NCBI GenBank assembly: GCA_002343455.1
Contig: DDSR01000315.1
Span: forward strand, 1-10,709
Direction of reading: 5' to 3'
Origin: Deltaproteobacteria bacterium UBA2385
Lineage (GTDB): Bacteria; Myxococcota_A; UBA796; UBA2385
DNA: 10,709 nt
Below, piece after piece: positions 1,296-10,709 of this stretch. Numbering within the stretch: the first letter of the stretch is position 1; every line of letters starts with the position of its first letter. The position numbers and the translations under genes are program-made. The notes beneath the pieces are model-generated. The model made no database searches and was not told where the DNA came from. It worked only from the letters and a program-made list of their open reading frames with translations.

Positions 1296-2675
1296 TCAGT
1301 CGATCGGCAGCTCGTCGAGCAGCGCGGAGAACTCGTCGTAGAGCAGCTCGGACTTGGTCCCCGGAAAGCCCGTCACGAGCAGGTTGGTGGACTCGGAGGA
1401 GTCGCCGTCCAGGTCGTAGAAGTACTCGGTCCCGGTGAGCTTGCGGACCAGCTTGTACCGACCGTCCGAGACGGTCTGCCCGGCGTTCTCGTCGCGGATG
1501 GGGCCCCCGAAGACCTCGCTCACCACCGTGGCCCGCTGTCGCTTCGCCCGCGGGTCGTAGAGGTAGGGCAGCAGGCTGATGGAGTCGATGGTCGTCTCGG
1601 CCGGAACGGAGGCGCTCACCCGGCCGCCGGCCAGCTCGATGATGGTGGCGAAGAGGTCCAGGGTGTTGACCGGGTGGCGGATGCGCTTGCCCCCGGTGAG
1701 CAGCCCAGGACCAGCGATGATGAGGGGGACCTGGACGCCGCCCTGGTAGAGGGAGCCCTTGGCCTTGCCCGGCAGGTAGGTGCCCTGGTTGACCCGGGCC
1801 TCGGTCCCGTTGTCGCCCATGTAGATGATCACGGTGTGGGCTCGCGTGACATCGTCCATCGACGCGAGCAGCCGACCGATCTCGGTGTCCACGGACTCGA
1901 GCATCGCCTGGTAGTACTCGTCGGGGCGATCGTCGATGTCGTCGGACTCGCCGGTGAGGTCGTCGTAGGAGTGCAGGTCGGCCGGAGGGAGGTGCAGGGG
2001 GGTGTGTGGGGCGTGGAAGGAGACGTAGGCGAACCAGGGGCCCTCCTGCTCTTCGATCCAGTCCAGCGCGTCGTCGACCGTCCGGGTGGTGGCGTAGTCG
2101 GTCACGGTGGCCTCGACGCCGTTCTCGACCCGGGACCACTCGTAGAAGTCCTCGAGGTGGCCGTTGATCGCGCCGGCGTACTGGTCGAAGCCCATCAGGT
2201 TGGGGTGGTTGGCCAGCCCGTTGTCGGCGTCGCCCAGGTGCCACTTGCCGAAGGCCCCGGTCGCGTAGCCCAGGTCGGCCTCGCCCAGGATCTGCGGCAG
2301 GCCCAGCTCGTCCAGCGAGGGCCCGGGGGCGCCCGTGTTGAGGGGAGAGCCGACCCCGGTGCGCGAGGCGTAGCGGCCGGTGAAGAGGCCCGCCCGCGTG
2401 GGCGAGCAGTAGGGGCTGGACCAGGCCTGGTCGAAGGCGACGCCGTTGTTGCAGAGGCGCTCGATGTTCGGCTGGGGGGCGCGGGTCGCCGCCGGGTAGC
2501 TGTAGCAGGCGCTCTGGTCGGTCCCGACGTCGTCGGAGACGATCAGCAGGATGTTCATCGGGGCTGGCTCGAGGCTTCGAGCAGAGCGCGAGTCATCCTG
2601 GCGACTCGCCAGGTTGGTTCCCACCTCCGGTTCGCACCCGAGCAGCGCCACACTCAACAGAGACACCCAGGGCAT
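1296..2675 (-). CDS. Lipoprotein sulfatase, formylglycine (Cys) type
   Basis: The 459-aa protein begins MPWVSLLSVALLGC, a lipoprotein signal with a lipobox at ALLGC, so Cys14 is the likely acylated N-terminus and the enzyme is membrane-anchored outside the cytoplasm. The type I sulfatase landmarks follow in order: NILLIVSDDVG (metal Asp48/Asp49), CSPTRAGLFTGR (Cys90-x-Pro-x-Arg94, the site converted to formylglycine), GKWHLG (Lys144, His146), HAPH (His221/His224) and YMGDNGTE (Asp288/Asn289, metal). GKAKGSLYQGG fits the usual 'K.G.yeGG' segment. The enzyme should hydrolyse sulfate esters; the substrate (aryl or glycan) cannot be told. Activity needs a formylglycine-generating enzyme or anSME, and neither is in the window. 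The start at 2675 is chosen over an in-frame ATG at 2696 because GGGAGGG lies 7 nt upstream of it and the lipobox then follows at the right distance. It is divergent from a Tat-exported deacetylase-like gene. Confidence 0.93.
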   Translation of the reverse strand: MPWVSLLSVALLGCEPEVGTNLASRQDDSRSARSLEPAPMNILLIVSDDVGTDQSACYSYPAATRAPQPNIERLCNNGVAFDQAWSSPYCSPTRAGLFTGRYASRTGVGSPLNTGAPGPSLDELGLPQILGEADLGYATGAFGKWHLGDADNGLANHPNLMGFDQYAGAINGHLEDFYEWSRVENGVEATVTDYATTRTVDDALDWIEEQEGPWFAYVSFHAPHTPLHLPPADLHSYDDLTGESDDIDDRPDEYYQAMLESVDTEIGRLLASMDDVTRAHTVIIYMGDNGTEARVNQGTYLPGKAKGSLYQGGVQVPLIIAGPGLLTGGKRIRHPVNTLDLFATIIELAGGRVSASVPAETTIDSISLLPYLYDPRAKRQRATVVSEVFGGPIRDENAGQTVSDGRYKLVRKLTGTEYFYDLDGDSSESTNLLVTGFPGTKSELLYDEFSALLDELPID

Positions 2676-2682
2676 CGCCGTT

Positions 2683-2689
2683 CCCTCCC
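2683..2689 (-). promoter_or_regulatory. Strong ribosome binding site of the sulfatase gene
   Basis: GGGAGGG on the minus strand lies 7 nt upstream of the ATG at 2673-2675. It is one of the best Shine-Dalgarno matches in the window. It falls inside the coding sequence if translation began at the alternative ATG (2694-2696), so it decides the start. Confidence 0.75.
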
Positions 2690-2752
2690 GGCCCATTGAT
2701 AGCACCCGGCGATGCGCGAGCGGAAGGGGGTGAGGGGGGTTCTGCTCACATT

Positions 2753-2861: not shown

Positions 2862-3959
2862 ATGTCCGACCATCGTGATCCCAGCCGCCGCAGCGTGCTC
2901 GGGAGCCTCGCCGCGGCAGGCGTCAGCCTGCTCTTCTCGCCCTCCTCCTCGGCTGGACCGGCGCTGCGGACCAGCTCGCCGGGTACCGGCAGCGCGGCGG
3001 GCACGAAGGCCTACATCAACTTCGTGATCAACGTGCAGAACTTCCGGTACCTCAGCAGCAGCGTCGACACCGTCGGCAAGCTCTGCAGCACCTTCGCCAA
3101 GTACGGGGTGAAGGGCGACTTCTACCTGACCGGGCCGATGGCCCAGCTCTACAACAAGTCCAACCCGGAGATCTTCACCAAGCTGAAGGGCCAGGGCATC
3201 TGCTACCACAGCCGCCCTCCCCACGCGATCTTCACCGGCTTCGAGGGCAAGCTGGAGGGCTTGAGCGGGGATCAGCTCACCAGCCGGATCAACGACTTCG
3301 AGACCCAGTACCTGGACCTGGAGACCGGGCAGCTGGACTCGTCCAAGAGCGGCGGCTTCGCCCTGGTGACGTCGCTGCTCGGCAAGGCGCCCTCCTGCGT
3401 CGCCGTGCCCACCAGCAACGACACCATCAAGGCGGCGGCCTGCCAGTGGTACAAGGACAACGGCGCCAAGGCGGTCGTCTGGTACCACAAGGCCCAGGAC
3501 CTGGGCAGCAACCCCTACCAGACCAAGAACGGGCTGCTCAGCCGGCCCTCGGACATCGTGGTCGAGCAGTGGAAGGCCAGCGGCGAGTCCGGCAGCACCC
3601 TGTGGTGGAACCGCTACAGCAGCGGCTACCCCGGCGCGGACGGCAAGCCCCACAACTACATCGAGCAGAAGGTCGGCACCTGGCAGGGCAAGCGCGCCCC
3701 CTTCGTGACGGTGCTGATCCACGACAACAACTTCACCCGGAAGGGCCCGGATCCCTGGCTCAACACCTTCTGGAAGGACAAGGAGAAGACCAACCCCCGC
3801 AGCGCGCCCTTCGACCTGGAGGCGACGGACCCCAGCTCTCGCCGCAGCGACGAAGAGCAGAGCCGCATCCTGCAGGCCTACGGCAACATGGTGGAGTTCT
3901 GCGCCCAGAACTACAACGTCGTGACCATGGCCGACATCTGCACGATGGCTGGCGTCTAG
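2862..3959 (+). CDS. Tat-exported protein resembling a polysaccharide deacetylase (NodB-like)
   Basis: The 365-aa product starts with a twin-arginine signal: SRRSVLGSL, then a hydrophobic Ala/Leu stretch and SPSSSAG as a likely cleavage area near residue 32. Export in folded form suggests a metal cofactor. The mature part begins AYINFVINVQNF and continues TVGKLCSTFAKYGVKGDFYLTG (about residues 50-88), the layout of a NodB beta-strand followed by the 'll.kygv+atFf.tG' helix-strand. CYHSRPPH (His116, His121) stands where the NodB metal histidines occur. FVTVLIHDNNF (His287) resembles the late 'LlHD' motif, and YNVVTMADIC the usual C-terminal 'y.fvtl.e'. The classical 'TFDD' Asp pair is not seen, so catalysis is not assured. 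Composition is Lys/Asn/Tyr-richer than the neighbours. It is divergent from the sulfatase, suggesting joint action on an extracellular glycan. The fold assignment is moderate and the substrate unknown. Confidence 0.55.
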   Translation: MSDHRDPSRRSVLGSLAAAGVSLLFSPSSSAGPALRTSSPGTGSAAGTKAYINFVINVQNFRYLSSSVDTVGKLCSTFAKYGVKGDFYLTGPMAQLYNKSNPEIFTKLKGQGICYHSRPPHAIFTGFEGKLEGLSGDQLTSRINDFETQYLDLETGQLDSSKSGGFALVTSLLGKAPSCVAVPTSNDTIKAAACQWYKDNGAKAVVWYHKAQDLGSNPYQTKNGLLSRPSDIVVEQWKASGESGSTLWWNRYSSGYPGADGKPHNYIEQKVGTWQGKRAPFVTVLIHDNNFTRKGPDPWLNTFWKDKEKTNPRSAPFDLEATDPSSRRSDEEQSRILQAYGNMVEFCAQNYNVVTMADICTMAGV

Positions 3960-3990
3960 GCCCGGCTGGCTGCTAGGCCCGGCTGCGCGC
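3957..3990. repeat. 17-bp tandem duplication spanning two convergent stop codons
   Basis: TAGGCCCGGCTG occurs at 3957-3968 and again at 3974-3985, with period 17; over the full period the two units match at 14 of 17 positions. The first copy supplies the TAG stop of the plus-strand gene (3957-3959). The second copy starts within the stop of the minus-strand gene (CTA, 3973-3975). The intergenic gap is therefore only 13 bp and consists of the repeat. No terminator hairpin with a T-run is seen. Confidence 0.8.
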
Positions 3991-4623
3991 CCAGCCCCGG
4001 GCGAAGTCTTCGACCGGGATATAGCGGCCAGCGGCGCCGACCTCCTCCCAGCCGCGCGGCCAGCTTGCGGAGCGCTCGGCCCAGGGCGCCTCGACGAGCT
4101 CCAAGGGGAGGGGAGGGGGCCGGTCGATGTCGATGATCAGCACGCTGCGGTGGGCCCCGGAGCGGTTGAAGCTCTGGTGGAACAGCAGGTCGTCGAACAT
4201 CAGCAGCTCGCCCTCGACCAGGGGGCGCTCCTCGTCGCCAATGCGGATGACACACTCGCCCCGCACGTCCAGGCCCATCAGCACCCGCAGGATGAAGGTG
4301 GAGATCTCCGGCGGGCCCTGGTGGGGCTGGATCTCCGTGCCCGGGCCGATCCGGCTGATGGCGGCCGAGCGGAGGTGGGGGATGCGCGCCAGCAGGTCGC
4401 AGGTCCCGGGCATGGCCGCGCTGTTGTCCAGGTTGAGCTTGTCAAAGAGGTACAGCGGGAAGATGCACCAGTCCGCGCCGTGCTCGTCGTTGCCGCGCTG
4501 GCGCAGGTCGAACCAGCCGGGCTGACCCTGGATCGCCCGGGCTTCGGCCTGGATGGTCGGGGAGCCCCGCCGTAGCAGCTCCAGCTCGGGACGGAGGGCG
4601 CGCCAGTCGGGGAAGGGGATCAT
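3973..4623 (-). CDS. Aspartyl/asparaginyl beta-hydroxylase-family protein
   Basis: The 216-aa product matches the short bacterial form of the Asp/Asn beta-hydroxylase family, Fe(II)/2-oxoglutarate dioxygenases with a double-stranded beta-helix. IQPHQGPP (His101 as first iron ligand) is followed by a strand-rich segment (STFILRVLMGLDV, ECVIRIGDEERPLVEGELLMFDD). FDDLLFHQSFNRSGAHRSVLIIDID then gives the distal iron His149 and the 2-oxoglutarate-binding Arg159. These match the family patterns 'H.G', 'fDds..H...N' and 'R..L..D'. There is no signal peptide, so it acts in the cytoplasm. It is the last gene of the minus-strand operon; its ATG overlaps the TGA of the upstream lipoprotein gene by 4 nt (4620-4623), implying translational coupling. 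Substrates of most bacterial members are unknown, so hydroxylation of an Asp/Asn side chain or of a small molecule is inference. Confidence 0.85.
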   Translation of the reverse strand: MIPFPDWRALRPELELLRRGSPTIQAEARAIQGQPGWFDLRQRGNDEHGADWCIFPLYLFDKLNLDNSAAMPGTCDLLARIPHLRSAAISRIGPGTEIQPHQGPPEISTFILRVLMGLDVRGECVIRIGDEERPLVEGELLMFDDLLFHQSFNRSGAHRSVLIIDIDRPPPLPLELVEAPWAERSASWPRGWEEVGAAGRYIPVEDFARGWARSRA

Positions 4624-5669
4624 CGGGGAGCTTCCGAGAGGATTCGGGCGACCACAGGGTCGGCATGGGGATCGGCCTGGGTGTCGGCCCGGGCGGCGCG
4701 CTCGGCGGGATCGGCGGTCAGGGCGAACAGCTTCGCGGCGGTCCAGCGGACCCGGGGCCGGGGGTCGTCGAGGCCGACGGCAAAGGCCTCGGGCCCGGCG
4801 GCAGGGTGGCCATAGAGGGCGTGGAGGATGGCGATGTCGGCGTCCTCGTCGACGGTCTCGCCGACCAGCCGCAGGCCGCCGCCGTAGAGGGGGAGGTGAG
4901 GGAGGCCCTCGTCCTCGGGTCCGGGTCGGAAGGGCGGGTAGCGCTCGGGAGGGGGGTCGGGGTCGGGGCTGCCCTCCAGGATGCGGCCCTCGGTCCAAGC
5001 GAGGTGGAGCAGGCTGCCGGCCTCGGGGGGCAGCGCTCGCTGGCCCAGCAGCCGCACCGCCTCGGTGGCCCAGCCGGTGCGCAGGGCGGGCCCGAGCTCG
5101 CCTTCGACGCGGGCGAGGCCTGGATCGGCCCGGCCGCTGCCCAGGAAGACCCGGCGTCCCCAGGCGGCGCGGAAGGCGTCGCGTCCCTCGCCGGCGACGC
5201 CCGGGTCGGGATGAGCCGCCAGGGAGGCCTCCACCGCCTGCAAGAGCTCCGCGCCCTCGGCCTGGAGCTCGGAGGGCCCTGTCCGGAGCTCGGCGCGCTC
5301 GCTCGGGCGCAGGCGCCAGGCCGCGTGGGTCAGGCAGCGCCGCGCGAACCAGCCCGCCTTGGCGCACCAGGCCACGGCCGGGACCGCCTGCCCGGTCGTG
5401 GCCAGCTCCTCGCCCAGCCGGAAGTGGCACTCCTCGCGCCAGGTGCCCTCGGGGATCTGCGCGCAGGCACGGGCGGCCTGCTCCTCCTCCCCGCGGCGGG
5501 CCCGCAGCGCGGCCTCCTGCACCCGGCAGGTGATCGCCAGCTCGGCGAAGGGCTGGGCGTCGCAGACCTCGGCCAGCGCGACGGGATCCTCGGGCCAGGG
5601 CTGCAGCGCCGCGGCGACCGGGTCGGCGCCGGCCGGGTCGGCGGCGCAGGCCAGCAGCAGCAGGATCAC
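4620..5669 (-). CDS. Lipoprotein with paired-cysteine helical repeats and a HEAT-like C-terminus
   Basis: The 349-aa protein starts at a GTG that overlaps the preceding stop by 4 nt (GTGA, 5666-5669). It reads MILLLLACAAD, a minimal lipoprotein signal with LLAC as lipobox (Cys8) and no basic residue before the hydrophobic stretch. Three cysteine pairs follow: Cys36/Cys48, Cys69/Cys81 and Cys102/Cys112. The first member of each pair is exactly 33 residues after the last. The segments between are helical (for example REECHFRLGEELA and RRCLTHAAWRL), so this looks like disulfide-stapled helix-turn-helix repeats, similar in principle to Sel1/TPR-type solenoids. After a low-complexity middle (PDPDPPPERYPPF, about 235-247) the segment DDPRPRVRWTAAKLFALTAD (301-320) resembles a HEAT repeat. 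It is likely anchored in the envelope facing an oxidising compartment. I recognise no named family. It shares the Cys-pair motif with the next upstream gene. Confidence 0.78.
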   Translation of the reverse strand: MILLLLACAADPAGADPVAAALQPWPEDPVALAEVCDAQPFAELAITCRVQEAALRARRGEEEQAARACAQIPEGTWREECHFRLGEELATTGQAVPAVAWCAKAGWFARRCLTHAAWRLRPSERAELRTGPSELQAEGAELLQAVEASLAAHPDPGVAGEGRDAFRAAWGRRVFLGSGRADPGLARVEGELGPALRTGWATEAVRLLGQRALPPEAGSLLHLAWTEGRILEGSPDPDPPPERYPPFRPGPEDEGLPHLPLYGGGLRLVGETVDEDADIAILHALYGHPAAGPEAFAVGLDDPRPRVRWTAAKLFALTADPAERAARADTQADPHADPVVARILSEAPR

Positions 5670-5995
5670 CGCGGGGCCTGCGGCGTCGTGGAGAGGTGCG
5701 GGCGGCCCAGCACCTGGCGGCACTTCTCGCGGGCCGCCTCGCTGGCGGCGTCGGCGCAGAAGGCGCCCGCCCGGGTGGGCTCGGCGACAGCGAGGCGCAG
5801 CAGCAGCAGGTCGCGGCTCTCGGGCTCGGGGATGGCGGCGATGGCGGCGCGCAGCTCCTCGGGCCGGTCGATCAGCTCGAGGGCGAAGCGCAGGCGGCAG
5901 TCCTCGCGCTCGGTCGGGCCGAGGGAGGCGCACCCGGCCATGTCCCGAGGCGGGCCCTGGCAGGCCCAGGCCAGGGCGAGCACGGCGAGGCTCAT
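5666..5995 (-). CDS. Small lipoprotein with paired-cysteine motif
   Basis: The 109-aa product begins MSLAVLALAWACQG, with a lipobox ending at Cys12. The mature part holds two cysteine pairs: Cys22-x10-Cys33 within GCASLGPTEREDCRLRFALE, and Cys80-x11-Cys92 within CADAASEAAREKCRQVLG. A Cys-free middle copy (IAAIPEPESRDLLLLRLAV) sits at half the distance (about 29 residues from each). All three share an R-(E/D)-x-C/L-R/L core and appear helical. This is the same design as in the next gene downstream, so the two may be related or assemble together. Its ATG overlaps the TGA of the crotonase-family gene by 4 nt (5992-5995), and its own stop overlaps the next GTG by 4 nt. The product is envelope-anchored and its function is unknown. 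The frame has consistent codon use and no better start. Confidence 0.75.
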   Translation of the reverse strand: MSLAVLALAWACQGPPRDMAGCASLGPTEREDCRLRFALELIDRPEELRAAIAAIPEPESRDLLLLRLAVAEPTRAGAFCADAASEAAREKCRQVLGRPHLSTTPQAPR

Positions 5996-6846
5996 CGAGG
6001 CTGGCGGGCGCGAGGCGGCCACTGCACGAGCTGGCCGGAGGTGAGCTCGCGGAAGTTGGCACGCCCGACGGCGGCGTCGCCGTTGTCCAGGCAGCGCTCG
6101 TAGGCGCGGGCCTCGATCTCGGCGCGGTCGGCGGGCTCGCAGCCGACGCTGTCCAGGACGCCCTGCTTGAAGGCGGCGATGGCGGTCGGGGAGCGCCGGG
6201 CGACGGCGGCGGCCAGCTGGCGCGCGCGCTCCAGGCCCGTCTCCAGGCTGTCGAAGCGCTCCTGGACGAGGCCGATGCGCTGCGCCTCTTTCGCGTCCAG
6301 CCGCTCGCCGGTCATGCCCAGGCGCATCGCCTGGGGCACGCCGACCATCGCCCACAGCTCGCTGGTCCCGCCGGCGCCCGGCAGGATGCCGATTCCCGTC
6401 TCGGGCAGGCCGAAGGAGGCGCCGGGGCCCGCGATCCGGTAGTCGGCGGTGATCAGGAACTCGGTGCCCCAGCCCAGGGCCACCCCGTCGACCACGACGA
6501 TGTGGAAGACCGGCGCCCGCCGCAGCCGGGTCAGCACCGCCCGCTGGTGTCGCACATGGGTCCGGACCTGCTCGGCCGTCCAGCCCCCGCGCTCGGTCAC
6601 ATCGGCGCCCGCGATGAAGATCGGGGTGCCCTTCTCGCTTCGGCGACGGCTCCAGGTGATCAGGGCGCGGGCCTGGCCCTCTTCCAGGGCGAGGGTCAGG
6701 CGCTTCCACTCGTCCAGCAAGGCGCTGCCCATCTCGTTGGCGCGGCCGTGGTCGAGCTCGACCTCGACCACGCTGCCGGGGGGGTGACCGGGCAGCTCGG
6801 GCAGGTGGACGCGCAGGTGCGTGAAGTCGGTGGGGTGGACGGACAC
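5992..6846 (-). CDS. Enoyl-CoA hydratase/isomerase (crotonase) family protein
   Basis: The 284-aa product carries the crotonase landmarks. FIAGADVTE (about 77-85) is the first oxyanion-hole segment. VDGVALGWGTEFLITADYRIA (119-139) corresponds to 'G.a.GGG.El....D', with Glu129 at the first catalytic Glu position. FGLPETGIGILPGAGGTSEL (145-164) corresponds to 'f..PE..lG..PG.GGt..L', with Glu149 at the second. Both acidic residues used by enoyl-CoA hydratases are present, although the usual GGG turn reads GWG. The CoA substrate and exact reaction cannot be told. The start is a GTG at 6844-6846, supported by GGAGG 5 nt upstream. There is no signal peptide, so it is cytoplasmic. It heads a four-gene operon with two lipoproteins and a hydroxylase, an unusual setting for a beta-oxidation-type enzyme. 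It is divergent from a plus-strand lipoprotein gene 75 bp away. Confidence 0.9.
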   Translation of the reverse strand: MSVHPTDFTHLRVHLPELPGHPPGSVVEVELDHGRANEMGSALLDEWKRLTLALEEGQARALITWSRRRSEKGTPIFIAGADVTERGGWTAEQVRTHVRHQRAVLTRLRRAPVFHIVVVDGVALGWGTEFLITADYRIAGPGASFGLPETGIGILPGAGGTSELWAMVGVPQAMRLGMTGERLDAKEAQRIGLVQERFDSLETGLERARQLAAAVARRSPTAIAAFKQGVLDSVGCEPADRAEIEARAYERCLDNGDAAVGRANFRELTSGQLVQWPPRARQPR

Positions 6847-6851
6847 GGGCG

Positions 6852-6856
6852 CCTCC
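6852..6856 (-). promoter_or_regulatory. Ribosome binding site supporting the GTG start of the crotonase-family gene
   Basis: GGAGG on the minus strand ends 5 nt before the GTG at 6844-6846. No other credible start with a Shine-Dalgarno lies nearby in this frame. Confidence 0.65.
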
Positions 6857-6873
6857 GGGTGTTCGCCCGATAA

Positions 6874-6907
6874 CCGGCGCGGCGGTTTGCCGGGCCGCCC
6901 GCGCCGG
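6874..6907. repeat. GC-rich hairpin between divergent genes
   Basis: CCGGCGCGG at 6874-6882 has an exact inverted copy CCGCGCCGG at 6899-6907. Three further pairs (CGG 6883-6885 with CCG 6895-6897) form across one bulged base, leaving a loop of about 9 nt. There is no T-run, so it is not a typical intrinsic terminator. It ends 14 nt before the ATG of the plus-strand lipoprotein gene, where it could fold in the leader RNA, or it could serve as an operator for both divergent genes. Confidence 0.45.
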
Positions 6908-6921
6908 GTGATGGGCTCCCC

Positions 6922-7323
6922 ATGGCGCTCCTCATCCTGATGCTCGGCTGCCAGGGCCTGGCAGGGCGCTGGGAGGGCACGCTGCTCTGCCCCGGCCGCC
7001 AGACCTCCTTGGAGGGCGAGGCCGTGCTGCTGCTCTGGCGCGACGGCGGGGGCGAGCTGGCCGGCGAGCTGCGGGCCGAGGGCGAGGCGGCCTCGACCAC
7101 CGGACGCGAGCCGATGCTGGCCGCCTGGGAGCTGGAGCTTGAGCGCAGCGCCCCCTCGGGCCGGCAGGACCTGGGCGCCGATCTGCGCGCCTGCAGCCTC
7201 TACCTCTCGGGCGAGCTGGCCGAGGAGGGCTGCGACGACGCCCAGGGGAGCTGGACCTGGGACGGCGCCGGCGCCCTGTGGATGGAGGGCGAGCGCTGCG
7301 GCCTGGAGCTGGAGCGGGGCTGA
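6922..7323 (+). CDS. Small Cys-rich lipoprotein with a G-x-W-x-G start (lipocalin-like?)
   Basis: The 133-aa product starts MALLILMLGCQG, a very short lipoprotein signal with LMLGC as lipobox (Cys10). The mature chain begins GRWEGTLLC and alternates short hydrophobic and charged strands (EAVLLLWRD, GELAGELRAEGE, AAWELELERS, CSLYLSGELAE, GSWTWDGAGALWMEG), so it looks all-beta. Cys23, Cys91, Cys104 and Cys126 could form two disulfides. The G-x-W-x-G opening is like that of small lipocalin-type domains and resembles the GTWSG domain at 10291-10709, but similarity beyond the motif is weak. No clear Shine-Dalgarno precedes the ATG; a GC-rich hairpin ends 14 nt before it. It is a monocistronic gene between two minus-strand operons and converges with the beta-barrel gene 18 bp away. 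Function is unknown; an outer-membrane or periplasmic location is inferred. Confidence 0.72.
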   Translation: MALLILMLGCQGLAGRWEGTLLCPGRQTSLEGEAVLLLWRDGGGELAGELRAEGEAASTTGREPMLAAWELELERSAPSGRQDLGADLRACSLYLSGELAEEGCDDAQGSWTWDGAGALWMEGERCGLELERG

Positions 7324-7325
7324 TC

Positions 7326-7347
7326 GTTCAGGAGCTGGAGTTCAGGA
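7326..7347. repeat. Short direct repeat at a convergent gene junction
   Basis: GTTCAGGA occurs at 7326-7333 and 7340-7347 (period 14). The second copy contains the stop of the minus-strand barrel gene (TCA at 7342-7344). It is only 8 bp long and may be chance. Confidence 0.4.
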
Positions 7348-8181
7348 TCCCTGCTGGCCGATGCCCAGCACCGCCCGCCAGGCCGGCGTGCCGACGCCCG
7401 AGGAGACCCCCGCGCCGACCGCCGCCCGCAGCACGGTCCCCCCGCTCCGGCGATGGTGGGCGTTGAGGAGCAGCTCGGTCGGGTGGCTGCCCAGGCTGCC
7501 CCAGGGTGCCGCCAGCTCGGTCTGCGCGCTGGCCTCCAGGCTCAGCAGCCCGCCCTGCCAGGCCCGCAGCCCCAGCCCCCCACGCAGCAGCAGCCGGTCG
7601 TCCTGGACGAGGCCGTCGCCCTCGTTTCGCGGGCGGAGCGCGGTGGAGGCGCTGCCCCCGACCCAGAGGGGCCCGTGGCTGCCGTCGGCGACCAGGCCCA
7701 GCAGGCCGGTGATCCCCTCGGCGCCCTGGGCCTGCTCGGCCGCGCCCAGCGGGAGGCCCAGCCCGCCGGCCAGCGCCAGCCCCAGGCCCGCCTCGCTGCC
7801 GGGCAGCAGGACCAGCCGCCCGTCGACGCGGGCGTCCCCCAGGCCGCTGGCCGCGGGGAGCGTGTCGCTGGTGGTGCGCAGCAGCAGGGGAGCCTGGGCC
7901 GAGAGGCGCAGCCGGCCGTGGCTCCAGGCGGCGCCCAGGTCCAGGCCCCAGACCTCGCGGATGATCGCCTCGATCTCGCCGCTGGAGTCCTGGAAGCGCA
8001 GGGGCGAGCGCACCAGGGAGAGGTCGGCGCGGGCGAGGTAGCCGCGCTCGGCGTGGGTCGAGGGCACCCAGAAGCTGCCGCTGCTGTCGACCTCGGCGCG
8101 GGCGTGGGCGGCGTCGATCGCGGGCCAGGTGGGGGCCGGGTCGGAGCTGGCCCAGGCGGTGGCGAGCAGCAGGAGGATCAT
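7342..8181 (-). CDS. Outer-membrane beta-barrel protein (OmpA-family barrel without OmpA domain)
   Basis: The 279-aa product has a Sec signal (MILLLLATAWASS, cleavage likely after AWA). A Gly/Leu-rich series of alternating strands follows: WGLDLGAAWSHGRLRLSAQAPL, SGLGDARVDGRLVLLPG, AGLGLALAGGLGLPLG, RLLLRGGLGLRAW, LLSLEASAQTEL. It ends GVGTPAWRAVLGIG. The order 'LGD.r..gr..l' then 'lgla..gglglP.G' and a final 'GTP.wR...Gi' is the pattern of the N-terminal barrel of myxobacterial OmpA-family proteins. There it is normally followed by thrombospondin-type-3 repeats and an OmpA domain, and both are absent here. The C-terminus is GQQGS, not the aromatic residue common in outer-membrane barrels. 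The start at 8181 overlaps the preceding TGA by 4 nt (8178-8181) and places the signal peptide correctly. It is the last gene of the operon. Confidence 0.72.
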   Translation of the reverse strand: MILLLLATAWASSDPAPTWPAIDAAHARAEVDSSGSFWVPSTHAERGYLARADLSLVRSPLRFQDSSGEIEAIIREVWGLDLGAAWSHGRLRLSAQAPLLLRTTSDTLPAASGLGDARVDGRLVLLPGSEAGLGLALAGGLGLPLGAAEQAQGAEGITGLLGLVADGSHGPLWVGGSASTALRPRNEGDGLVQDDRLLLRGGLGLRAWQGGLLSLEASAQTELAAPWGSLGSHPTELLLNAHHRRSGGTVLRAAVGAGVSSGVGTPAWRAVLGIGQQGS

Positions 8182-9080
8182 CCCCGCACCCCCGGCGGCA
8201 GCAGCAAGGGGCGCGCCTCGCTGGGGATGCCCAGGAAGCCGAGCCGGTCGTAGGGCGCCACCCGCCACCAGAGCCCCTCGATCGCCTGGGGGGCGAAGAG
8301 GAAGTCCGGCAGCCAGCGCGGCTCGGCGACGTCCATGGCCTCGACGATGTCGGTGAAGGTCGCGTCGGCGGAGAGCTCGATCCGGTAGCCGGTGCCGTGC
8401 GGGACCTCCTGCCAGTGGAAGTCCGGCCGGATCAGCGCCGTCCCGGCCTCCGGGCTGAGCAGGGCCTGGGAGAGCAACAGGTCGACGGGCGCGGTCGGCG
8501 CCTCTCCCTGGCTCACCCGGCTGCCCTTGCCCGCGGCCAGCTCCAGGCTGCCGCCGTCCCCGCTCAGCCGGATCCCGCCGGTGACCGCCTCGGTGCGGGT
8601 CGCGCGCTCCTCGATCGCCACGCGGAAGCCCCCGTCCTTGCCCTCGGCGAGGCCGTCGCGGGTGCGGATGGCCAGGGTGCGCGCGGTCGACGAGCCTCCC
8701 CGGGGGCGGGGGGTCGCGACCGTGATGGAGCCCCGCTCGACCCGCAGCTGGGTCCGGTCCGCGGTGGCCTGCTCGATGTCGAGGCAGGTGCCCGGCATCA
8801 GCACGACGTCGTGGGCGCCGCTGGAGGTGGGGCTCGGGTCCAGGCGCACCGTGGCGAAGGAGTCCGGCCCGGTGCAGACCGTCGCCCCCAGCGGCAGCCC
8901 CGTGCAGCGATCCACCTGCACCGGCGAGGCGCCCGAAAGGCTGACGAAGGCCGGCCCGGAGAGCCCGATCAACATGGCCGCGTCCGGCTGTTCGGCGGGC
9001 GCCTGGGCCCGGGCGGGGTGACTCTGGAGCGAGAGCCCCAGCAGCGGGAGCCCCAGAAGTGCACGGACGAGGGCGCTCAT
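8178..9080 (-). CDS. Exported FecR-domain protein with FN3-like C-terminus
   Basis: The 300-aa product has a Sec signal peptide (hydrophobic stretch LLGLPLLGLSL, cleavage near residue 25 after ARA). The central part (about 40-195) follows the FecR-domain order: LSGPAFVSLSG, a short loop to VCTGPDSFATVRLDPS, VVLMPGTCLDIEQAT, LRVERGSITVATP, LAIRTRDGLAEG-DGGFRVAIEE, VTGGIRLSG and LELAAGKGSRV. The C-terminal part (about 208-296), with DFHWQEVPHGTGYRIELSAD, FTDIV and GLWWRVAPYDRLGFLGIPSE, is an FN3-like module of the type often paired with FecR domains in Myxococcota. Unlike FecR itself it has no cytoplasmic anti-sigma region or internal TM helix, and no ECF sigma gene adjoins, so a structural or ligand-binding envelope role is more likely than signalling. 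Cys59, Cys69 and Cys99 are present. Both ends overlap the neighbouring genes by 4 nt. Confidence 0.8.
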   Translation of the reverse strand: MSALVRALLGLPLLGLSLQSHPARAQAPAEQPDAAMLIGLSGPAFVSLSGASPVQVDRCTGLPLGATVCTGPDSFATVRLDPSPTSSGAHDVVLMPGTCLDIEQATADRTQLRVERGSITVATPRPRGGSSTARTLAIRTRDGLAEGKDGGFRVAIEERATRTEAVTGGIRLSGDGGSLELAAGKGSRVSQGEAPTAPVDLLLSQALLSPEAGTALIRPDFHWQEVPHGTGYRIELSADATFTDIVEAMDVAEPRWLPDFLFAPQAIEGLWWRVAPYDRLGFLGIPSEARPLLLPPGVRG

Positions 9081-10294
9081 CGGCTGCCTCCGGGAGGAAG
9101 GGGGAGGATCTCGCAGGCGCGCTGCGCCTCGGGCGAGGCGCTCGGGTCGGCCTGCTCGGGCGGCGGCAGCAGGATCAGCCGCGCCTCGCTCAGCCCCAGG
9201 CGCAGCAGCTCGGCGCGCACGGCCTCGGCCCGGGCCCGCGCGAGCGCGCGGTTGGCCTCGGGGGTCCCTTCGGGCGAGTACAGCCCGCGCAGCTGGAAGC
9301 TCCAGCTCCCGGCGTTGGCGGCCAGCGTCGCCAGGGCCTGCCGCTGCGCCGGCCCCAGCGCGGCCGAGCCCAGGTCGAAGCTGAGGTGATGGGGGCGATC
9401 GTCGCTGTCCCCGCGGACCCAGAGGGCGTGGCCGGCGGCGACCGCCGTCTCGAAGCGGCGCTGGCGGCCCGCGCCGACCACCTCGATGTCCACGGGACCC
9501 GCGGCCACGCTGCTGACCACCGAGCCGTCGGCCCGCGAGGGCAGCTCGGCACCTCCCACCCGGATCCGGTCGCCCGGTCGCGCCGCCACCACCAGGCTGC
9601 CCTGGGTCGGCCGCAGCAGCGCCTCCAGGTCCAGCCCCGCGGGGATGGCGCTGCCTTGCAGCCCGCCCTCGCTCGCCGCCCGGACCTGGCCCTCGATCAT
9701 GCACTGGCGGAGCGGGTGGGGGATCCAGAGCCAGCGTTCGCGGTCGGTGGGGGCCGTCGGCTCGGTCGTCGCCGACCCGGGCGGGCCATCGGAGGGCGGC
9801 TCGTCGATGGGCGCCTCGGCCGGCATCTCAGGGCGCGGCCGAGGCCATGCAAGCCCGACGCCGGCGATGAGCGCGTGCCGGTCGCCGCCGAGATCGACCA
9901 GGTAGCGCGCCTGCACCCGGGGCAGGATCCGCCCCGAGCCGGGCAGGTCCAGGGCGCTGCCCAGGGCGAGGTCGGGCTGCAGCGCGCCGTGGAAGCGGGC
10001 CCCGCCGCCCAGGGTGGCGCTGAGCGCCCCGCCGCTGGGGCCGCGCTCGACCAGGTACAGCCTCAGCTCGGGCCGCCCGGCCAGCCAGGGCTCCGCCGTG
10101 GTTGAGAGGCCTCCTTCGAGCTGGACCCCCAGGTGCAGGCGCGGGTGCAGCGGCCAGGCCACGCTGCCTCCGAGCCCGGCGCCGTCCCCGTCGGACGCCG
10201 GGAGGGTCCCCAGCGCCCCCCACAGGTGCAGGTCGAGCTGGGGCTCGGCCGCGCTGGCGGCGCCGAGCAGCAGGGCGAGCGCAGGGAGGTTCAC
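9077..10294 (-). CDS. Beta-rich envelope protein with C-terminal OmpA-like domain
   Basis: The 405-aa product starts at a GTG overlapping the upstream stop by 4 nt (10291-10294), with signal MNLPALALLLGAASA. Residues about 18-150 are amphipathic strands (LDLHLWGALGTL, LHLGVQLEGGLS, ELRLYLVERG, GGALSATLGGGARF, LIAGVGLAW), consistent with a small barrel. Residues 151-183 are a Pro/Glu-rich linker (RPRPEMPAEAPIDEPPSDG). Residues about 184-298 form a second beta-rich domain (SLVVAARPGDRIRVGGAEL, PVDIEVVGAGRQRRFE). Residues about 303-378 are OmpA-like: LSFDLGSAALGPAQRQALATLA, then GLYSPEGTPEANRALARARA, then RAELLRLGLS. OmpA-like domains normally bind peptidoglycan. Arg355 aligns with the diaminopimelate-contacting Arg, but Ser340 replaces the conserved Asp. 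Cys198 and Cys394 may pair. It is co-transcribed with the FecR-domain and barrel genes. Confidence 0.78.
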   Translation of the reverse strand: MNLPALALLLGAASAAEPQLDLHLWGALGTLPASDGDGAGLGGSVAWPLHPRLHLGVQLEGGLSTTAEPWLAGRPELRLYLVERGPSGGALSATLGGGARFHGALQPDLALGSALDLPGSGRILPRVQARYLVDLGGDRHALIAGVGLAWPRPRPEMPAEAPIDEPPSDGPPGSATTEPTAPTDRERWLWIPHPLRQCMIEGQVRAASEGGLQGSAIPAGLDLEALLRPTQGSLVVAARPGDRIRVGGAELPSRADGSVVSSVAAGPVDIEVVGAGRQRRFETAVAAGHALWVRGDSDDRPHHLSFDLGSAALGPAQRQALATLAANAGSWSFQLRGLYSPEGTPEANRALARARAEAVRAELLRLGLSEARLILLPPPEQADPSASPEAQRACEILPLPPGGSR

Positions 10295-10709
10295 CCGCTG
10301 CTCCGGCGAAGGGCGATGGCCGCGGTCCGCTCGCCGCTCATGGCGTGGTACCTCCCCGAGATGGTGCGACCATCCGCGCTCAAGCTGGCATCGTAGCGAC
10401 CGGCGGTCGGGTCCACCAGGGGGTCGAGCTCCTCGGTGAGCAGCAGGCGGCCCGAGGCCTCGTCCAGGCTGCCTCGGACGCTGACCGTCCGGGCGACCCC
10501 GGTGGTGGGGTGCTTCAGGGTGAGGCGGCCTTCCAAGGCCTCGCTGCGGCCGCCCAGGACCAGGGTGGCGCGCTGCGAGTGGACGTTGCCGCTCCAGGTG
10601 CCCGCGGCGGGGGAGGCCTCCCCGACGGGCGCCGCGGAGGAGGCCGCCGGGGCCTCGCCGGGGGCGGACGTGCTGGGCGCGGGCGCAGGCGCGGGGGAGG
10701 GCGCGGGGG
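10291..10709 (-). CDS. Protein with Pro/Ala-rich linker and C-terminal G-x-W-x-G beta domain (5' end beyond window)
   Basis: Only the C-terminal 138 codons and the stop (TGA, 10291-10293) are visible; the frame is open at the right edge. The first 35 or so visible residues are a Pro/Ala/Ser linker (PAPSPAPAPAPSTSAPGEAP). A beta-rich domain of about 100 residues follows, starting GTWSGNVHSQRATLVLGG. It continues with short strands (EGRLTLKHP, RTVSVRGSLDEASGRLLLTEE, GRYDASLSADGRTISGRYHAM) and ends IALRRSSG. The pattern 'G.W.G ... l.G.l ... G.y...ls.dg..i.G' suggests a lipocalin-like sandwich. The linker suggests a tethered extracytoplasmic domain, for example at the end of a lipoprotein or a membrane protein kinase; this cannot be decided from the window. 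Its stop overlaps the next GTG by 4 nt, so it is upstream in the envelope operon. Confidence 0.7.
   Translation of the reverse strand, partial: PAPSPAPAPAPSTSAPGEAPAASSAAPVGEASPAAGTWSGNVHSQRATLVLGGRSEALEGRLTLKHPTTGVARTVSVRGSLDEASGRLLLTEELDPLVDPTAGRYDASLSADGRTISGRYHAMSGERTAAIALRRSSG

What the first reader, a model, noticed from the sequence alone, without database searches (positions are those of the whole stretch)
7342..10709. Four-gene coupled envelope operon: G-x-W-x-G protein, OmpA-like protein, secreted FecR protein, stand-alone barrel
Four exported or probably exported proteins are encoded with 4-nt overlaps at every junction, which implies stoichiometric co-translation and perhaps a complex. 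Myxobacterial OmpA-family proteins normally carry barrel, thrombospondin-type-3 repeats and OmpA domain in one chain. Here the barrel ends at the usual 'GTP.wR' border and stops, and an OmpA-like domain sits in another gene two positions upstream, with a FecR/FN3 protein between them. A barrel, peptidoglycan anchor and periplasmic ligand-binding or scaffold set could be an uncharacterised outer-membrane assembly.
Basis: partly seen in the sequence, partly recalled or inferred. Interest (0 to 1): 0.72.

Follow-up and report, generated by a model that had tools for sequence, protein, structure and literature searches.

The report
Trans-envelope kinase signalling operon
The four genes are not a stand-alone outer-membrane complex: they look like the tail of a conserved gene set in which a membrane protein kinase is encoded with outer-membrane and cell-wall proteins, probably to sense the state of the cell envelope and change gene expression.

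Summary
The ORFs and their three 4-nt overlaps are real, but the reading changes. The window is a whole contig that ends inside the first gene. In relatives the "G-x-W-x-G protein" is the C-terminal part of a Hanks-type Ser/Thr kinase, behind a hydrophobic helix; it is predicted as an avidin/GID4-like eight-stranded beta cup. The OmpA-like protein is not split from its barrel: it has its own OprF/OmpA-type eight-stranded barrel, and an OmpA/Pal-fold C-terminus that lacks the DAP-contacting Asp in 17 of 17 family members. Relatives of the FecR protein mostly carry a LysM-like start, absent here. The last gene is a stand-alone relative of the barrel of large OmpA proteins. Kinase, OmpA-like and FecR genes lie together in every same-order locus whose contig reaches them (24 of 24 and 25 of 25). 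An FHA + winged-helix-like regulator is linked in 18 of 22, the barrel in 13 of 26. OmpA-like and FecR families co-occur in 22 of the 25 genomes that have either (377 searched). Most likely: an envelope-sensing kinase pathway, comparable in logic to PknH-EmbR and TagQRST-PpkA-Fha but a member of neither. Signal, contacts and output are untested.

The parts
10291..10709 (-). C-terminal part of a probable transmembrane Hanks-type Ser/Thr kinase, cut by the contig end; kinase domain and membrane helix would lie beyond the window
   Evidence: 57% identical to the C-terminus of a 628-aa kinase in the same genus; alignment A5 of 14 such C-termini
10294..10602 (-). G-x-W-x-G domain, predicted avidin/GID4-like eight-stranded beta barrel, inferred to lie in the periplasm
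10603..10707 (-). Pro/Ala-rich linker ahead of the G-x-W-x-G domain
   Evidence: sequence; similar stretches in relatives
9077..10294 (-). OmpA-like outer-membrane protein (called OmpL here), 405 aa, GTG start, signal peptide by eye
   Evidence: PF00691 25.9 bits, cut-off 27.2; family alignment A3 of 17; model
9839..10249 (-). N-terminal eight-stranded outer-membrane barrel of OmpL (residues 16-152)
9419..9598 (-). middle beta domain of OmpL, possibly PEGA-like
   Evidence: weak profile match, E 0.019, to 9k1u_D, a Ser/Thr kinase chain; low model confidence; the PEGA label is recalled
9095..9406 (-). OmpA/Pal-fold C-terminal domain without the DAP-contacting Asp
8178..9080 (-). secreted FecR-domain protein; relatives mostly have a LysM-like start, absent here
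   Evidence: PF04773 16.2 bits, cut-off 24; 48 homologues besides itself; LysM-like start in 22 of 26 same-order members
7342..8181 (-). stand-alone outer-membrane barrel, homologous to the N-terminal barrel of large OmpA proteins
   Evidence: 28% identity over 282 columns to L068:223-2112; homologues in 58 of 58 genomes
10291..10294 (-). 4-nt overlap GTGA, kinase/OmpL
   Evidence: sequence
9077..9080 (-). 4-nt overlap ATGA, OmpL/FecR
   Evidence: sequence
8178..8181 (-). 4-nt overlap ATGA, FecR/barrel
   Evidence: sequence

Best explanation
The four ORFs are the 3' part of a trans-envelope Ser/Thr-kinase signalling operon. SHOWN by sequence comparison in relatives: a Hanks kinase joined by a hydrophobic helix and a Pro/Ala linker to a small beta domain is encoded ahead of an OmpA-like outer-membrane protein and a FecR protein that usually has a LysM-like start; often with a stand-alone barrel behind and an FHA + winged-helix-like regulator beside them. 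INFERRED: the beta domain is a ligand-binding cup in the periplasm. The OmpA-like, FecR and barrel proteins form an outer-membrane/cell-wall arm that presents the signal, or holds the kinase, when the outer membrane or wall is disturbed. The kinase autophosphorylates, the FHA regulator docks on phosphothreonine, is phosphorylated, and its winged helix changes transcription. In the window's genus the regulator gene seems to have left the operon and LysM is lost, so the barrels would do the anchoring.
For: Kinase identity: PF00069 E 9.5e-36 to 2.8e-41 in the four kinases scanned, 2.4e-38 in L203; HRDxKxxN and DFG in 16 of 16 kinases, and a hydrophobic segment between kinase and C-terminus in 13 of 16 (not L063, L070 or the short L078; L067 has a second, Ala/Val-rich one). 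Order: kinase ahead of OmpL in 24 of 24 loci (the window counted by its tail, two with the FHA gene between), OmpL next to FecR in 25 of 25, of 27 loci. The loci were picked by OmpL or G-x-W-x-G matches; they hold 25 of the 26 FecR places. FHA regulator linked in 18 of 22, barrel in 13 of 26. FHA E 3.9e-19 and 5.8e-17; winged helix E 0.007 and 0.0005, below cut-off. Co-occurrence 22/2/1/352, Fisher 2.8e-32, not corrected for kinship. Kinase-FHA pairs stand without OmpL/FecR in five loci, three of them in genomes without a strong OmpL or FecR match, so the pair looks like a signalling unit of its own. Two distant genomes have OmpA, kinase and LysM-FecR genes in one run with 4-nt overlaps. Sensor fold.
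Against: No interaction, signal or target is shown. In the window's genome the kinase domain is not seen: the contig ends, and the missing part could not be assigned. No FHA gene is linked in the only other same-genus locus (G001); four of 22 loci lack it. In G016 and G041 the G-x-W-x-G domain was not detected behind the kinase. The set is patchy: 34 of 58 order genomes have neither family at my thresholds. Only one of five sensor-domain models is confident, from two sequences. Phosphatases were not looked for.
Confidence: 0.6

Rival explanations
1. The envelope proteins are outputs, not inputs: the kinase-FHA pair senses something by itself and the OmpL, FecR and barrel genes belong to its regulon, placed in the same operon for co-expression.
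For: Kinase-FHA pairs exist without envelope genes; the barrel is optional (13 of 26).
Against: OmpL and FecR stay with the kinase where FHA is unlinked (4 of 22 loci); the distant operon with another signalling partner (cyclase) keeps OmpA, kinase and FecR together.
Confidence: 0.25
2. An outer-membrane assembly without signalling role: barrel, OmpA and FecR proteins form a structural or ligand-binding complex.
For: Conserved adjacency; a LysM-FecR protein whose C-terminus looks like a barrel by eye in two distant genomes.
Against: Kinase ahead of OmpL in 24 of 24 loci, FHA in 18 of 22; barrel missing from half; DAP Asp replaced 17/17.
Confidence: 0.08
3. Chance or loose clustering of unrelated envelope genes.
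For: 4-nt overlaps are common in these loci: 39 of 152 same-strand pairs.
Against: The same order in six families of the order and co-occurrence in 22 of 25 genomes.
Confidence: 0.02
4. A type VI secretion threonine-phosphorylation switch (PpkA-Fha type).
For: Same logic: envelope proteins, membrane kinase, FHA partner (PMC10482370, passages).
Against: T6SS sheath family PF05591 found in 2 of 58 order genomes, not in the window's, which is 88% complete; the FHA partner carries a winged-helix-like end.
Confidence: 0.02

Closest known systems
PknH-EmbR of Mycobacterium (PMC4601284, passages seen)
   Same: transmembrane Ser/Thr kinase whose extracellular domain has a cleft; FHA-containing regulator with an OmpR-type DNA-binding domain; EmbR's output concerns the cell envelope
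   Different: EmbR has its DNA-binding domain first and FHA last with a BTA domain between; here FHA is first and the winged-helix-like part last; that PknH is not encoded with OmpA, FecR or barrel proteins is recalled; the sensor folds were not compared
TagQRST-PpkA-Fha threonine phosphorylation pathway of Pseudomonas T6SS (PMC10482370, passages seen)
   Same: outer-membrane and periplasmic proteins act ahead of a membrane Ser/Thr kinase that acts on an FHA protein
   Different: T6SS sheath family not found in 56 of 58 genomes; TagQRST themselves were not searched for; the output here is apparently transcription
FecA-FecR-FecI / PupB-PupR cell-surface signalling (PMC7186176, passages seen)
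   Same: outer-membrane barrel plus FecR-type periplasmic domain linked with signalling
   Different: here the hydrophobic stretch is at the very start of FecR, so there is no room for an N-terminal anti-sigma domain; no STN match; the inner-membrane step would be a kinase
OprF/OmpA family (Pfam PF00691)
   Same: eight-stranded barrel plus OmpA-C fold
   Different: extra middle beta domain; DAP-contacting Asp missing
[not shown]
   Same: an OmpA-C fold protein used for signalling
   Different: YfiB is a lipoprotein acting on a diguanylate cyclase branch (recalled)

Membership tests
Hanks-type transmembrane Ser/Thr kinase | kinase domain with HRDxKxxN and DFG | tested here: inconclusive
   met in 16 of 16 relatives; in the window itself the domain lies beyond the contig end, so membership rests on 57% identity of the C-terminus
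Hanks-type transmembrane Ser/Thr kinase | membrane helix between kinase and sensor | tested here: inconclusive
   hydropathy segment in 13 of 16 relatives; beyond the contig end in the window; direction of insertion inferred
OmpA/OprF by fold | eight-stranded outer-membrane barrel | tested here: met
   [not shown]
OmpA/OprF by fold | OmpA-C fold | tested here: met
   [not shown]
peptidoglycan-binding OmpA | Asp and Arg that bind diaminopimelate (Asp271, Arg286 in A. baumannii OmpA; PMC5974059, passages) | tested here: not met
   Asp replaced 17/17, Arg kept 17/17; both kept in 4/4 canonical OmpA proteins of the same loci; placed by alignment and by the 15-residue spacing
FecR/PupR sigma regulator | N-terminal anti-sigma domain ahead of the membrane helix | tested here: not met
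   hydrophobic stretch starts within the first residues (sequence); only FecR matched at E up to 1
FecR/PupR sigma regulator | C-terminal STN domain that meets the transducer | tested here: inconclusive
   no STN match at E up to 1; structure not predicted
FecR family | homology over the FecR and C-terminal parts | tested here: met
   40-86% identity over most of the length to the hits aligned (34% at the lowest)
FecR family | LysM-like start (common, not universal) | tested here: not met
   absent from the window, G001, G033 and disrupted G008; present in 22 of 26 by a profile built from 28 rows of A1; LysM by 4uz2, E 4.7e-7, but Pfam found no LysM in L162 or L062
PknH-EmbR type pair | FHA regulator with DNA-binding domain encoded with the kinase | tested here: inconclusive
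   18 of 22 same-order loci; not seen in the window, unlinked in G001; winged helix below Pfam cut-off
PknH-EmbR type pair | kinase phosphorylates the FHA regulator | not testable with these tools
   needs biochemistry
T6SS threonine phosphorylation pathway | T6SS in the genome | tested here: not met
   PF05591 not found in G000, found in 2 of 58; G000 is 88% complete

The most novel reading that the evidence does not exclude
A three-layer envelope receptor of a new kind: a Ser/Thr kinase that uses an avidin/GID4-like beta cup as its periplasmic receptor and is gated directly by a wall-facing FecR protein and outer-membrane OmpA barrels, handing the state of the outer membrane to an FHA transcription factor without sigma factor, TonB or histidine kinase.
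Probability: 0.3. Interest if true: 0.8.

Novelty: new variant of a known kind. Interest (0 to 1): 0.58.

Why it matters
How signals cross from the outer membrane to the cytoplasm is known for few systems (TonB transducers with FecR, Rcs, sigma-E, TagQRST; recalled apart from the first and last). This genome has many Ser/Thr kinases (65 matches to one kinase query) whose inputs are unknown here. A conserved operon that names likely envelope partners and an FHA regulator makes one such pathway directly testable, and would put FecR-type proteins outside sigma-factor control.

Tried and rejected
Split OmpA (barrel and OmpA domain in two genes): rejected, OmpL has its own predicted barrel. Stoichiometric co-translation from 4-nt overlaps: not special, 6 of 6 same-strand pairs called in the window and 39 of 152 over all called loci have them (the gene caller gives them a small bonus). 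T6SS switch. Own-genome search for the missing kinase half: candidates at contig ends (C21 kinase start; C413 FHA gene) could not be connected; C413 is syntenic with G001:C349, where my tblastn found no kinase of this family in the 9 kb read, so it looks like an unlinked regulator. Tree of 28 FHA regulators: the two unlinked genus copies group with linked ones at 85/90 only; 8 of 25 inner branches open. Searches that found nothing: plasmids by protein, OmpL in genome contigs, sensor domain in the protein database (none of 1565 candidates), Pfam for the sensor domain (best E 0.038). The profile match of the sensor domain to streptavidin (E 0.001 for two chains of unusual length, 6s50 and 6s4q; other streptavidins 0.28 and worse) would not stand alone. 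Not examined: the FecR-like place G008:C1 (E 1e-12), and 44 of the 51 genomes outside the order with weaker FecR matches. In the phylum searches only the best few candidates of each genome were scored. Literature, open-licence PMC text only: 0 papers with FecR domain + LysM + Myxococcota, 0 with 5 of FecR/LysM/OmpA/adenylate cyclase/protein kinase/operon; no title or abstract start about this cluster in the listings (12 of 12 shown; 1 of 1; 10 of 15; 10 of 88). Four papers were seen as passages; none was read whole.
Full report
WHAT IS THERE. The window is the whole contig C250 of a 6.76-Mb, 496-contig draft genome, 88% complete. Four minus-strand frames fill 7342-10709; the three junctions overlap by 4 nt. 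The first gene is cut by the contig end. The one named locus found is in Myxococcota bacterium isolate MAG.533, JAKLKF010000026.1 (L195); its contig has the same length as G001:C188, of a same-genus genome.

FECR AND BARREL. The FecR protein has 48 homologues besides itself at E up to 0.001, among the 7998 candidates scored. A profile from their N-terminal region finds a LysM-like start in 22 of 26 same-order members; not in the window, G001 and G033, nor in the disrupted G008. The LysM name rests on 4uz2 (E 4.7e-7) and on Pfam labels in 2 of the 49 proteins; Pfam found neither LysM nor FecR in L162 and L062. The last gene aligns over its full length with the barrel of a large OmpA protein, a family with matches in 58 of 58 order genomes.

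CONSERVATION. I collected 27 loci of the order: the window, the 20, L159, L161-L164 and L203. They were picked by OmpL or G-x-W-x-G matches and hold 25 of the 26 FecR places (not G008:C1, E 1e-12). OmpL stands next to FecR in 25 of 25 loci where the contig allows (not L161, L164); the kinase lies ahead of OmpL in 24 of 24 (not L076, L159, L161), in two of them with the FHA gene between, in the window as a tail only. The FHA gene is linked in 18 of 22 loci (absent from L059, L068, L069, L074; window, L071, L076, L159 and L161 not held far enough). The barrel follows FecR directly in 13 of 26 (not held in L164). A further locus, L218, has FHA-kinase-OmpL at a contig end. Overlaps of 4 or 1 nt: OmpL-FecR 15 of 16, kinase-OmpL 9 of 16, FecR-barrel 6 of 7 pairs called (the caller favours them slightly). 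In 377 phylum genomes, strong FecR matches (E below 1e-40) occur in 24 and OmpL (E up to 1e-20) in 23, all in this order; both in 22; Fisher 2.8e-32, not corrected for kinship. The sensor domain is matched in 30 of 377, all in this order. 34 of 58 order genomes have neither FecR nor OmpL family at these thresholds.

TWO TELLING VARIANTS. First, kinase-FHA pairs with no OmpL or FecR beside them: L213, L214, L215, L216, L221 (L205 ends too soon to tell); three of these genomes (G035, G019, G050) have no strong OmpL or FecR match at all. So the pair can occur alone and the envelope genes look like an addition. Second, FecR relatives elsewhere in the phylum: 51 genomes outside the order have weaker matches. 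I read seven of these loci (L196-L202); OmpA matches lie in the neighbourhood of FecR in all seven. In L200 the run is OmpA, a cyclase with HAMP (and a dCache match below cut-off), a kinase, and a 670-aa protein with LysM and FecR; L201 has the same layout, with LysM-FecR and OmpA confirmed by Pfam, the kinase by tblastn and the 579-aa cyclase-like protein not scanned. The three junctions overlap by 4 nt in both. The last 150 residues of the LysM-FecR proteins look like a barrel to my eye; Pfam has no match there.

HOW IT LIKELY WORKS. Shown: the parts, their order and their domains in relatives. Inferred: outer-membrane and wall proteins present or mask a signal for the kinase's beta cup; kinase, FHA regulator and winged helix carry it to the genes. 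Precedents, seen as passages: EmbR is phosphorylated by PknH, which needs its FHA domain and stimulates promoter binding, and PknH's outer domain has a cleft (PMC4601284). TagQ and TagR act ahead of PpkA and Fha (PMC10482370). Sigma regulators of the FecR type have an N-terminal anti-sigma domain, a membrane helix and a periplasmic part with an STN domain (PMC7186176); the first has no room here and no STN match was found. The direction (sensor arm or regulon) is open; I give 0.6 to sensing, 0.25 to regulon.

AGAINST MY READING. The kinase half is not seen in this genome; the regulator is unlinked in this genus (G000:C413 and G001:C349 are syntenic); the set is patchy; two kinases lack a detectable sensor domain; the sensor model rests on two sequences and one of five models; no contacts were tested.

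Noticed in passing
L200:5527-12396 and L201:1306-7953: In two distant phylum genomes a coupled run OmpA - cyclase-like protein (HAMP + cyclase in L200, not scanned in L201) - Ser/Thr kinase - LysM-FecR protein with a barrel-like C-terminus by eye; kinase and cyclase side by side with envelope genes.
   Followed up: partly
L213, L214, L215, L216, L221: Two-gene pairs of a G-x-W-x-G kinase and an FHA regulator without OmpL or FecR beside them.
   Followed up: partly
L153:56-1039 (G000:C413) and L158:3973-4950 (G001:C349): Unlinked FHA + winged-helix-like gene with conserved neighbours in the window's genus, a possible partner of this kinase.
   Followed up: partly
L078:5558-9544 (G008:C24): The locus looks disrupted: OmpL and FecR match in pieces and the kinase frame is short (or assembly errors).
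   Followed up: no
window 4620-7323: Genes 4620-5669, 5666-5995, 5992-6846 (enoyl-CoA hydratase family) and 6922-7323 (+) have counterparts in the same places beside the G001 cluster; three have no Pfam match.
   Followed up: partly
window 1296-2696 (-): Sulfatase (PF00884, E 1.1e-51).
   Followed up: no
window 3973-4623 (-): Aspartyl/asparaginyl beta-hydroxylase (PF05118, E 1.3e-28).
   Followed up: no
window 2862-3959 (+): 365-aa protein with no Pfam family; the longer frame from 2802 has a weak Tat signal match below cut-off.
   Followed up: no
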